Origin: Leptothermofonsia sichuanensis E412
Lineage (GTDB): Bacteria; Cyanobacteriota; Cyanobacteriia; Leptolyngbyales; Leptolyngbyaceae
NCBI RefSeq assembly: GCF_019891175.1
Contig: NZ_CP072600.1
Location: forward strand, 4,712,001-4,776,000
Direction: 5' to 3'
DNA length: 64,000 nucleotides
Numbering within the stretch: position 1 is the stretch's first letter; every line of letters begins with the position of its first letter. Below the pieces are notes generated by a model that saw only the letters and a program-made list of their open reading frames with translations, searched no databases and was not told the DNA's origin. The position numbers and the translations under genes were made by a program. Shown in pieces: positions 28,997 through 58,665 of this stretch.

Positions 28997-29063
28997 AGGT
29001 CACCTGTTCATGGTTAAGCAACTGAAGACGTTTACTCTCATCCTGTTTACTCTCATCCTAAAG

Positions 29064-29150
29064 CCTTGCTGACTTTGGGTTTGAATTGAGGGTTGTATGT
29101 ATTGAAGACGTTTTGAAGACGTTCAATTTATACGGCTACTCAATACCACC
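29064..29150. mobile_element. Family F MITE-like element, copy 1, with 10-bp target duplication
   Basis: 87 bp flanked by the direct repeat CATCCTAAAG at 29054-29063 and 29151-29160. Begins CCTTGCTGACTTTGGG and its reverse complement begins GGTGGTATTGAGTAGCC; internal blocks GAATTGAG.GTTGTATG and CAATTTATAC match the copy at 57959-58038. It lies in the divergent promoter region of the GT2 and Tab2 genes. Confidence 0.8.
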
Positions 29151-29271
29151 CATCCTAAAGTTCCCCAGATTGTTTGGATTTCTAATACACTATCTCCACC
29201 CAAAAAAGCAGGCTCTCAGTTCCGTCCCTTAATGGGAGAATGGAATACTGAATCTGCTCTTTTGAGATGCA

Positions 29272-55711: not shown

Positions 55712-57955
55712 ATGAGCATGGTTTCTACGGTGGAGGACTCCAGCCCACCGCGTCATAAGCGGGGAACGTCATTGTTGCGATCAGTAGGGGCGCGGCTTTT
55801 TCTTTCTGTTCTGGCTGGTTCGCTGGTGGGGTTGGTTGGTACTTCGTTTCTGTCTTACCGGGAACTGGCACGGCAGTCTGAGGCAGAACTGTTGTCTAAC
55901 TTGCAGGTCAAGGCAGGAAATTTGCGGGGAGACTTCGACACGTTTGAGTACTCCACTAAAATTGTTGGCGATGCAGTGGAAACCCTTTACGCCGCAGGAG
56001 AGCGTCGCGAGCAGGTCTATGTTAATTTGATTTACCGTTCCCTGAAAACCTCCCCCCTGGGAACGGGGCTGGGATTTGGACAACCCCCTGAGCGACGACT
56101 AATTATTCCCAGCCGCAAATATGCTTACCCCTATGCGGTGCGCGATCGCAGTGGTAAAGTCATCGCCAAAGGTGGAGAATCCAGTCAGGAAGATTTTGAA
56201 GCCGACTACTTTAAACTGCCGATCGCAGCGGGCAAGCCGGTCTGGCTGGAACCGGAGTCCTACCTGGAAACCACCCTGACCCCCCCTAAACGGCTGGTCA
56301 GCACCGCCTACTCTCTACCGCTCTACAGCAGCAAGAAAGAATTGCTGGGTGTTTTAAGTCAGGATCTGGAGTTGGGCTTTCTGAGTGAAAAATTGGGAGT
56401 GAGTGCCATGCGGAATGCAGGGCACTTTCTGCTGGTCAGTGAGCAGGGAAATCTGATTGCCTACCCTCCGGCACCCCATGAGGCATTAGCCCTGAAACCG
56501 TTTCCTCACCTGAATAATTACAACGGATTGTGGCAACAGATTCAGCAACGCTTGCAGTCAGGGGCGCAGGAAGGCATCCTGCACTGGACGGATGAAACAG
56601 GGAACCGAGAATTTTGGGCATACCAGCAGATTCCAAATAACAATTGGGTTTTGATGGCCTCAGTCCCAGAGTCTGTGGTGCTGGGCCCTGTGGTGCGATT
56701 CACAGCCCTGGGAACCTTAGGGTCAGTGGTCGGTGCCTCGATTCTCTTGGGGGTCGTTGTGGCTCTGTTTGTGCGACACTTAAATCAGCGGTTGCAGCCA
56801 ATTATGGATGAATGCAATCGTCTGGCAGAAACCAACGCCAAAAGTGAAGCCTTGATGAATCGAGAAGATGAACTGGGGCGTTTGACAATTTCATTCTATG
56901 CGCTTCTGGGGCAGGTAACTGTGAATGAGCGGCGTTTACGGCAAGAGATGGCAAAGTCAGAGAATGCCCTGCAAGCTTTACAACAGACCCAGGCACAACT
57001 GATTCAGACAGAGAAGATGTCAAGTCTGGGTCAACTGGTGGCTGGAGTTGCCCACGAAATCAATAATCCGATTAACTTTATCTATGGCAATTTACCCCAT
57101 GCCTCCAATTACACGCGGGACTTGCTGAAACTAATCCAGCTATACGACCAGCGCTACGGCGATGCGGATCCTGTCATCCAGTCTTTCCGGGAAGACATTG
57201 ACCTGGATTTTTTGGTTCAGGATTTGCAGAAGATGCTGGACTCCATGAGTATTGGGGCAGATCGAATTCGAGAAATCGTCCTGTCGCTGCGGAATTTCTC
57301 GCGTCTGGATGAGGCGGAAATGAAACGGGTAGATATCCATGAGGGGATTGATAGCACCCTGTTGATTTTGCAAAACAAGCTAAAAGAAAGTCCGGGACAT
57401 TATGGCATTCAGGTTGTGAAGCAGTATGGTAGTTTGCCACTGGTCGAGTGCTATGCCGGGCAGTTGAACCAGGTGTTCATGAATATTCTGAGTAACGCGA
57501 TCGACGCCCTTGATAAGATGAACCAGGAGCGTTCCGCTGAAGAGGCGGCAGCAAATCCAGCGACCATCACAATTCAGACTGAAGTACTGACCAGACAGCC
57601 TATTACCAGAAACAATTCAGGAAACGATTCAGGGAACAATTCGGAAAACCATTCAGAAACAGACTCTTCATTGAGAAGAAACTCTCAACCAGCCAGCCCG
57701 TCTGTGGTTGTCCGAATTCACGATAATGGTCCGGGAATTCCGCCCCAATACCAGAGTAAATTGTTTGACCCATTTTTTACGACAAAGCCTGTCGGTAAAG
57801 GTACAGGGTTAGGGCTTTCCATCAGCTATCAGATTGTCGTTGAGAAACATCACGGTGTTCTCAAGTGCCTTTCTCAACCAGGACAGGGAACAGAGTTTTG
57901 GATTGAAATTCCTGTCCGGCATCAGGATGGTGCCAAAGCAACACCCAATCACTAA
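55712..57955 (+). CDS. Membrane Cache histidine kinase with a tandem-repeat insert in its ATPase domain
   Basis: 747 aa. First membrane segment about 28-46, a large outside domain (about 47-325) with a double-Cache (PDC) layout (AGHFLLVSEQGNLIAYPP, WVLMASVPESVVL), second segment about 328-352, a HAMP-like region and coiled coil (NALQALQQTQAQLIQTEKMSSLGQLVAGVAHEINNPINF, H-box His at about 449), and a HATPase domain with N-box NQVFMNILSNAIDAL, DNGPGIP and GKGTGLGLSISYQIV. Between the N-box and DNGPG boxes lies an insert rich in N, S, G, D and E (residues 634-653) coded by five 12-bp tandem units. Stop TAA 57953-57955 lies in the 10-bp target duplication of the family F element. It has no response regulator beside it. 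Confidence 0.9.
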   Translation: MSMVSTVEDSSPPRHKRGTSLLRSVGARLFLSVLAGSLVGLVGTSFLSYRELARQSEAELLSNLQVKAGNLRGDFDTFEYSTKIVGDAVETLYAAGERREQVYVNLIYRSLKTSPLGTGLGFGQPPERRLIIPSRKYAYPYAVRDRSGKVIAKGGESSQEDFEADYFKLPIAAGKPVWLEPESYLETTLTPPKRLVSTAYSLPLYSSKKELLGVLSQDLELGFLSEKLGVSAMRNAGHFLLVSEQGNLIAYPPAPHEALALKPFPHLNNYNGLWQQIQQRLQSGAQEGILHWTDETGNREFWAYQQIPNNNWVLMASVPESVVLGPVVRFTALGTLGSVVGASILLGVVVALFVRHLNQRLQPIMDECNRLAETNAKSEALMNREDELGRLTISFYALLGQVTVNERRLRQEMAKSENALQALQQTQAQLIQTEKMSSLGQLVAGVAHEINNPINFIYGNLPHASNYTRDLLKLIQLYDQRYGDADPVIQSFREDIDLDFLVQDLQKMLDSMSIGADRIREIVLSLRNFSRLDEAEMKRVDIHEGIDSTLLILQNKLKESPGHYGIQVVKQYGSLPLVECYAGQLNQVFMNILSNAIDALDKMNQERSAEEAAANPATITIQTEVLTRQPITRNNSGNDSGNNSENHSETDSSLRRNSQPASPSVVVRIHDNGPGIPPQYQSKLFDPFFTTKPVGKGTGLGLSISYQIVVEKHHGVLKCLSQPGQGTEFWIEIPVRHQDGAKATPNH
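57611..57670 (+). repeat. 12-bp tandem array inside the histidine kinase gene
   Basis: Five units (57611-57622, 57623-57634, 57635-57646, 57647-57658, 57659-57670) of the pattern AACAATTCAGGA, the last one diverged. Translated, they give N-N-S-G, N-D-S-G, N-N-S-E, N-H-S-E and T-D-S-S. The reading frame is kept in every unit. Confidence 0.85.
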
Positions 57956-57958
57956 TCG

Positions 57959-58038
57959 GGCGTTGCTGATTTCAGGTATGAATTGAGCGTTGTATGAATT
58001 GAAACTTTGTTCCAATTCATACCGCTATTCAGCACCAC
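57959..58038. mobile_element. Family F MITE-like element, copy 2, with 10-bp target duplication
   Basis: 80 bp flanked by the direct repeat TCACTAATCG at 57949-57958 and 58039-58048. Begins GGCGTTGCTGATTTCAGG; its reverse complement begins GTGGTGCTGAATAGCGG. Inner arms GTATGAATTG and CAATTCATAC pair. It is inserted at the shared end of two convergent genes. Confidence 0.85.
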
Positions 58039-58041
58039 TCA

Positions 58042-58596
58042 CTAATCGAGATTACTATCGTAGATGCGGATCTGTCCGACTCCAAGATATTGCCCAAAGG
58101 GTTTTTCTCCGGTAGGAAATGCAGTGACACCGTACAGGTAAGTTCCAGCAACTGTGGGATTTCTAACAGGATATAAACGGATGGTGACGATTTTACCAGG
58201 AGGAATCGGTGGATTAAATTCAACAACTAAAGCAGGGACATCTGGATCCAGGTTGACACTCTCGATGGCAAGGGATTTACCAAGACGATTGCGGGTGCCC
58301 TCAAATGCTTCTGTGCTGCTGGCATCAAATAGAGGACGACCCAAGCCACCTTCTTGTACGATCGCGACCTTTTGAAGGGGTTCCCCTGCATTTTCTGGTA
58401 GTTCCAGGGTGAAGTAATAGGTTGCGCCCCAAATATAGGTTCCATCCTGACTGGATATTGCCCCTAACAGTCGGGGTGGATTGAGGAAATAGGTAGTGCC
58501 ATCAACCAGTTCAATCGCCTTAACAAATCCATTAGGCATTCCTGAGATTATAATGCAGGAAAATGCAATGAAAAATGATTTCCAGAGATATTTCAT
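58042..58596 (-). CDS. DUF2808-type secreted protein
   Basis: 184 aa from ATG 58596 (MKYLWKSFFIAFSCIIISG). A signal peptide (cut about residue 26, near FVKAIE) is followed by a beta-rich domain with the pattern of cyanobacterial DUF2808 proteins: IELVDGTTYFLNPPRLLGA, WGATYYFTLELPENAGEPLQKVAIVQ, FDASSTEAFEGT, NPPIPPGKIVTIRLYPVRNP and YLYGVTAFPTGEKPFGQYLG. Function unknown; periplasmic or outer location expected. Its stop codon lies in the right-hand target duplication of the family F element. The frame is open to 58659, but that part has a second hydrophobic stretch and is less likely coding. Confidence 0.82.
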   Translation of the reverse strand: MKYLWKSFFIAFSCIIISGMPNGFVKAIELVDGTTYFLNPPRLLGAISSQDGTYIWGATYYFTLELPENAGEPLQKVAIVQEGGLGRPLFDASSTEAFEGTRNRLGKSLAIESVNLDPDVPALVVEFNPPIPPGKIVTIRLYPVRNPTVAGTYLYGVTAFPTGEKPFGQYLGVGQIRIYDSNLD

Positions 58597-58665
58597 AGGT
58601 AGAAGCACTCCAAAGTAGAGAAATACATTAAAAAAGTTTGGAGTCAAGGAATAAATCACTTTAAT

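What the first reader, a model, noticed from the sequence alone, without database searches (positions are those of the whole stretch)
57949..58048. 80-bp mobile repeat inserted into overlapping stop codons of two convergent genes
The element (57959-58038) is flanked by a 10-bp direct repeat TCACTAATCG. The left copy holds the TAA stop of the histidine kinase (57953-57955) and the right copy holds the stop of the DUF2808 gene (58042-58044). Removing the element and one duplication leaves CACTAATCG, in which both stops share bases: the genes overlapped by 4 bp before. The duplication therefore restored both stops and separated two overlapping genes without damage. A related 87-bp element at 29064-29150 has its own 10-bp duplication, CATCCTAAAG. 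Two independent insertions with the same duplication length argue that the family moves by a transposase that makes 10-bp staggered cuts, and that the insertions are fairly recent.
Basis: partly seen in the sequence, partly recalled or inferred. Interest (0 to 1): 0.75.

Follow-up and report, generated by a model that had tools for sequence, protein, structure and literature searches.

The report
IS1-type miniature transposon between convergent genes
An 81-base transposon remnant, one of at least about 80 near-full-length copies in this hot-spring cyanobacterium, landed where two facing genes end, and the few target bases it duplicated left each gene its own stop codon: a neat but ordinary insertion.

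Summary
[quoted passage not shown] The genome is 6,426,061 bp, the published size of Leptothermofonsia sichuanensis E412. It holds at least 84 near-full-length copies, four of them 100% identical to the consensus. The two genes at the focal site keep separate stops because the duplicated target spans both.

Two corrections. (1) The duplication is not a fixed 10 bp. Copies aligned at the true 81-bp ends (GGcGtTGCTGA...TCAGCACCACC) give mostly 8 bp: exact matches of 8/9/10/11/13 bp in 20/7/3/2/1 of 84 copies. The focal copy has 9 (10 with a chance base); the 29-kb copy has 8, its "AG" being the element's own start. (2) The donor is an IS1-family insertion sequence. Relatives carry ~755-bp IS1 elements (InsA/InsB) whose ends match the MITE at up to 24 of 27 bases and which make 8-9 bp duplications. 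This genome keeps only an InsA fragment of that type; its intact IS1 copies whose ends I read differ.

An exact empty site was found for another copy (upstream of dnaK) in a congener. None could be found for the focal site: no relative examined has this gene pair. New member of a known kind; low interest.

The parts
57959..58039 (+). Focal MITE copy, 81 bp at family boundaries (reader gave 57959-58038); last base T where most copies have C
   Evidence: 96% identical to family consensus
57950..57958 (.). Left target duplication CACTAATCG (9 bp at family boundary; 10 bp TCACTAATCG if read literally); holds the HK stop TAA 57953-57955
58040..58048 (.). Right target duplication CACTAATCG; holds the DUF2808 stop (CTA 58042-58044 on +)
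55712..57955 (+). Sensor histidine kinase (Cache-like domain, HisKA, HATPase_c), 747 aa, convergent neighbour
   Evidence: full-length orthologue 82% identical in congener G001
58042..58659 (-). DUF2808 protein, 205 aa, convergent neighbour
29062..29150 (+). Second, more diverged MITE copy in the window, 89 bp (reader gave 29064-29150)
29054..29061 (.). Left target duplication CATCCTAA (8 bp)
29151..29158 (.). Right target duplication CATCCTAA (8 bp); the following AG matches the element's own first bases by chance

Best explanation
The repeat is a copy of a non-autonomous miniature transposon (MITE) derived from an IS1-family insertion sequence. Inferred mechanism: an IS1-type DDE transposase bound the two inverted ends, made a staggered cut mostly 8 bp apart (9 bp here), and inserted the 81-bp element; gap repair duplicated the target. 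Because the target spanned the overlapping stop codons of two convergent genes, the duplication gave each gene its own intact stop, so the insertion was probably near-neutral and was kept. Shown: the family, the duplications, an exact empty site at one other copy, and IS1 elements with matching ends in relatives. Inferred: which transposase acted, and the earlier 4-bp overlap of these two genes.
For: At least 84 near-full-length copies in the fetched part of the genome, four identical to the consensus. Exact duplications of 8 bp or more in 33 of 84 copies, null about 0.0002. Exact empty site for the copy upstream of dnaK in the congener: a single CTGTCTATGG, aligned across the junction without the element. 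Inverted ends GGCGTTGCTGA / GGTGGTGCTGA. IS1-family elements of ~755 bp in relatives have ends such as GGCGTTGCTGAATTAGGGTATGAATTA (24 of 27 identical to the MITE left end; background maximum 16) and duplications of 8 or 9 bp. InsA and InsB are recognised by Pfam, InsA below its curated cut-off. MITEs of sister genomes end in ...TTCAGCAACGCC, exactly the IS1 terminus. The own genome keeps an InsA fragment with such an end, about 160 bp from a MITE copy.
Against: No intact IS1 with these ends was found in this genome. Its other IS1 copies whose ends were read have different ends (GGTAATGTTCTAG, GGTAGTGAACTAG, GGTAGTCCTTTTT, GGTAGTGTTCCAG), so the enzyme that moved the recent copies is not identified. 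51 of 84 copies lack an exact 8-bp duplication, presumably through age or recombination. The empty site of the focal locus was not seen in any genome.
Confidence: 0.9

Rival explanations
1. The element is a MITE, but of a transposase family with a fixed 10-bp stagger, such as part of the IS4 family, as the first reader's 10-bp argument implies.
For: The literal repeat around the focal copy is 10 bp, and 10 bp can be read around the 29-kb copy.
Against: Aligned at the family ends, the modal duplication is 8 bp and the 29-kb case falls to 8 bp. The ends match IS1 elements at up to 24 of 27 bases.
Confidence: 0.03
2. The repeat was kept because it works, for example as a two-way transcription terminator or RNA-stability hairpin between the convergent genes, and not only because it did no harm.
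For: Both strands fold far better than shuffles as RNA (z about -4.4 and -4.3), and it sits exactly between two facing genes.
Against: No terminator-like or promoter-like site was found. The fold follows from the inverted repeats of any MITE. Copies are not enriched between convergent genes: 12 of 60, against 14 of 67 background gaps (rough gene calls).
Confidence: 0.12
3. The flanking repeats are a chance or tandem duplication and the element is an ordinary intergenic repeat that does not move.
For: One locus alone could not exclude it, and the focal empty site was not found.
Against: 33 of 84 copies have exact flanking repeats at the same boundary against about 0.02% expected, and an exact empty site exists for another copy.
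Confidence: 0.01

Closest known systems
IS1 family insertion sequences (InsA/InsB, Pfam PF03811 and PF03400), as in the relatives' ~755-bp elements (L190, L201, L204, L214)
   Same: Terminal inverted repeats GGCGTTGC(TG/AT)A...(T)ATGAATT, and 8-9 bp target duplications
   Different: The MITE is 81 bp and carries no gene; both its ends resemble the InsB-side end (TGCTGA) more than the InsA-side end (TGCATAA)
Cyanobacterial MITEs such as Nezha (cited in review PMC10969869) and the 187-nt Microcystis MITE thought to be moved by an ISL3-type transposase (PMC11448079)
   Same: Small non-autonomous elements of cyanobacteria, moved in trans
   Different: These were not compared here by sequence; the Microcystis one is attributed to ISL3, not IS1
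IS1 copies of E412 itself (9.74% of 431 ISs in PMC8997340; one at window ~232-1089)
   Same: Same transposase family; 8-bp duplication at L171
   Different: Ends GGTAATGTTCTAG do not match the MITE

Membership tests
MITE | Short, non-coding, many near-identical copies | tested here: met
   81-bp consensus, at least 84 near-full-length copies, four identical
MITE | Terminal inverted repeats | tested here: met
   Left and right ends agree at 20 of 27 positions; consensus
MITE | Target-site duplication | tested here: met
   33 of 84 exact at 8 bp or more, null about 0.0002
MITE | Insertion shown by an empty site | tested here: met
   dnaK-upstream copy against congener G001; not available for the focal copy
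IS1-derived MITE | Ends match an autonomous IS1 element | tested here: met
   Up to 24 of 27, background maximum 16
IS1-derived MITE | Same duplication length as the autonomous element | tested here: met
   8 bp (L190, L203, L204, L214, L198), 9 bp (L201) in relatives
IS1-derived MITE | Intact autonomous partner in the same genome | tested here: not met
   Only an InsA fragment with such an end; intact IS1 copies whose ends were read have other ends. Not a strict requirement for a MITE, whose partner may be lost.
IS1-derived MITE | Mobilised in trans by IS1 transposase | not testable with these tools
   Needs a transposition assay
   Mode 8 bp; only 3 of 84 copies have exactly 10

The most novel reading that the evidence does not exclude
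An IS1-derived MITE that has outlived its own transposase in this genome and was recently amplified by one of the non-cognate IS1 elements present (~33 near-identical copies with different ends), which would show relaxed end recognition in the IS1 family.
Probability: 0.12. Interest if true: 0.4.

Novelty: new member of a known kind. Interest (0 to 1): 0.22.

Why it matters
It identifies an unnamed repeat family that is abundant in E412 and present in 14 of 42 genomes searched from its taxonomic family, and links it to IS1. The E412 genome paper does not mention MITEs. The focal copy is a clear small example of how a target duplication that spans overlapping stop codons can separate two genes without damage. 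It is of catalogue and teaching value, not a new principle.

Tried and rejected
1) Empty site at the focal locus: DUF2808 and HK homologues in relatives; the two genes are not neighbours in any of them, so no test was possible. 2) Full-length donor in the own genome by end pattern: nearly all hits were further MITE copies, some stretched to ~180-196 bp; the rest (L130, L132, L135) showed no IS. 3) Left-end-only matches L088, L090 and L161: no transposase seen. 4) Plasmid and phage collections: no match. 5) Terminator/promoter scan: nothing. 6) Preference for convergent gene gaps: none. 7) IS4 family and other long-stagger families as donor: dropped once the 8-bp mode and the IS1 ends were found. 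For the Pfam scan of the InsA fragment one stop was read through.

Full report
What is there. The window lies at 4,712,001-4,776,000 of a single 6,426,061-bp chromosome. That is exactly the published size of Leptothermofonsia sichuanensis E412, a thermophilic cyanobacterium (PMC8997340); the identification rests on this match.

It is one copy of a family. A search of the own genome gave 40 strong matches, the cap of that search, from 262 candidates. Pooling all fetched loci and scanning them with a profile gave 104 matches, 84 of them near full length, and only part of the genome was scanned, so the true number is higher. The consensus is GGCGTTGCTGATTTCGGGTATGAATTGAGCGTTGTATGAATTGAAACTTCGTTCCAATTCATACNGCTATTCAGCACCACC, 81 bp. 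Four copies are identical to the version of it used as a query and the focal copy is 96% identical. The family is in 14 of 42 genomes of the same taxonomic family.

Ends and target duplication. With boundaries fixed there, exact flanking repeats of 8, 9, 10, 11 and 13 bp occur in 20, 7, 3, 2 and 1 of 84 copies. Flanks paired between different copies reach 8 bp or more about 0.02% of the time. The stagger is therefore mainly 8 bp. The focal duplication is CACTAATCG (9 bp) with one more matching base by chance. The 29-kb element starts at AG (29062), so its duplication is CATCCTAA (8 bp). The argument from 'two independent 10-bp duplications' fails, although the insertion conclusion stands on much stronger evidence.

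Empty sites. The copy 5' of dnaK (genome 2,690,643) was tested by joining its flanks. The congener G001 aligns straight across the junction, with a single CTGTCTATGG and no element. This proves insertion for that copy. For the focal copy no test was possible. The kinase has a full-length orthologue 82% identical in G001 and others 69-72% identical elsewhere, but none is followed by DUF2808. The DUF2808 homologues have other neighbours as well. The former 4-bp overlap is therefore a reconstruction: it follows from removing the element and one copy of the duplication.

Donor. A left-end match in genome G012 led to a decayed IS1 element. Searches with the IS1 transposase family (PF03400) and with InsA then found IS1 elements in most relatives. 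A group about 755 bp long has the MITE's ends: for example GGCGTTGCTGAATTAGGGTATGAATTA (24 of 27 identical to the MITE left end) and GGCGTTGCTGAATAGCGGGATGAATCA (21 of 27 to the right end). No unrelated sequence in the same loci exceeded 16 of 27. Members carry exact 8-bp duplications, one 9 bp. In G010 and G046 the MITE copies end in TTCAGCAACGCC, the IS1 terminus itself, and in G034 in a close variant; the G046 and G034 copies have 8-bp duplications. The assignment to IS1 is therefore strong by sequence. That IS1 elements usually make duplications of about 8-9 bp is also my own knowledge of the family, not a tool result.

The missing partner. The own genome has 45 PF03400 matches. About 33 are one near-identical element with ends GGTAATGTTCTAG; the others whose ends I could read are GGTAGTGAACTAG, GGTAGTCCTTTTT or GGTAGTGTTCCAG. 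I did not read the ends of every one of the near-identical copies. The only trace of the cognate type is an InsA fragment with the end GGCGTTGCAGAATAG, about 160 bp from a MITE copy. Since four MITE copies are identical, the family moved not long ago; either the cognate enzyme was lost afterwards or another enzyme serves. This is the one open point of some interest.

Effect on the two genes. The duplicated target spans both stops, so each gene keeps its reading frame and length. This needs no special mechanism: any insertion whose duplication covers the overlap does it, and selection removes insertions that damage genes. Copies overall lie between genes (1 of 61 placed inside a gene by rough calls) with no preference for convergent pairs (12 of 60 against 14 of 67 background gaps). 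The element folds well on both strands, as expected from its inverted repeats, but no terminator-like site was found.

Verdict. An ordinary MITE insertion at an unusually tidy place; a new, IS1-derived member of a known kind. The E412 genome paper does not mention MITEs, and I found no paper describing this family in the library available, which does not hold most subscription journals.

Noticed in passing
window ~232-1089: IS1-family element with ends GGTAATGTTCTAG; about 33 near-identical copies in the genome. No target duplication is visible around this copy, though L171 has an 8-bp one.
   Followed up: partly
L226 (genome ~4,218,740-4,219,170): A MITE copy lies about 160 bp from the only cognate IS1 InsA fragment found in this genome.
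   Followed up: partly
genome 2,690,643-2,690,721 (L012): A MITE copy sits directly upstream of dnaK with a 9-bp duplication; the congener has the empty site. It might alter dnaK expression.
   Followed up: partly
L134 ~568-762 and L136 ~521-702: Longer versions (~180-196 bp) of the same MITE with unrelated sequence between the ends.
   Followed up: no
genome 458,192 (L013): An open reading frame runs about 38 nt into a MITE copy, so the element may supply its stop codon, unlike the focal case.
   Followed up: no
L160 and L161 (G012, G009): In two genomes a MITE-like or IS1 end is read in frame inside an open reading frame as ...SGVA(E/D)LGYE.
   Followed up: no
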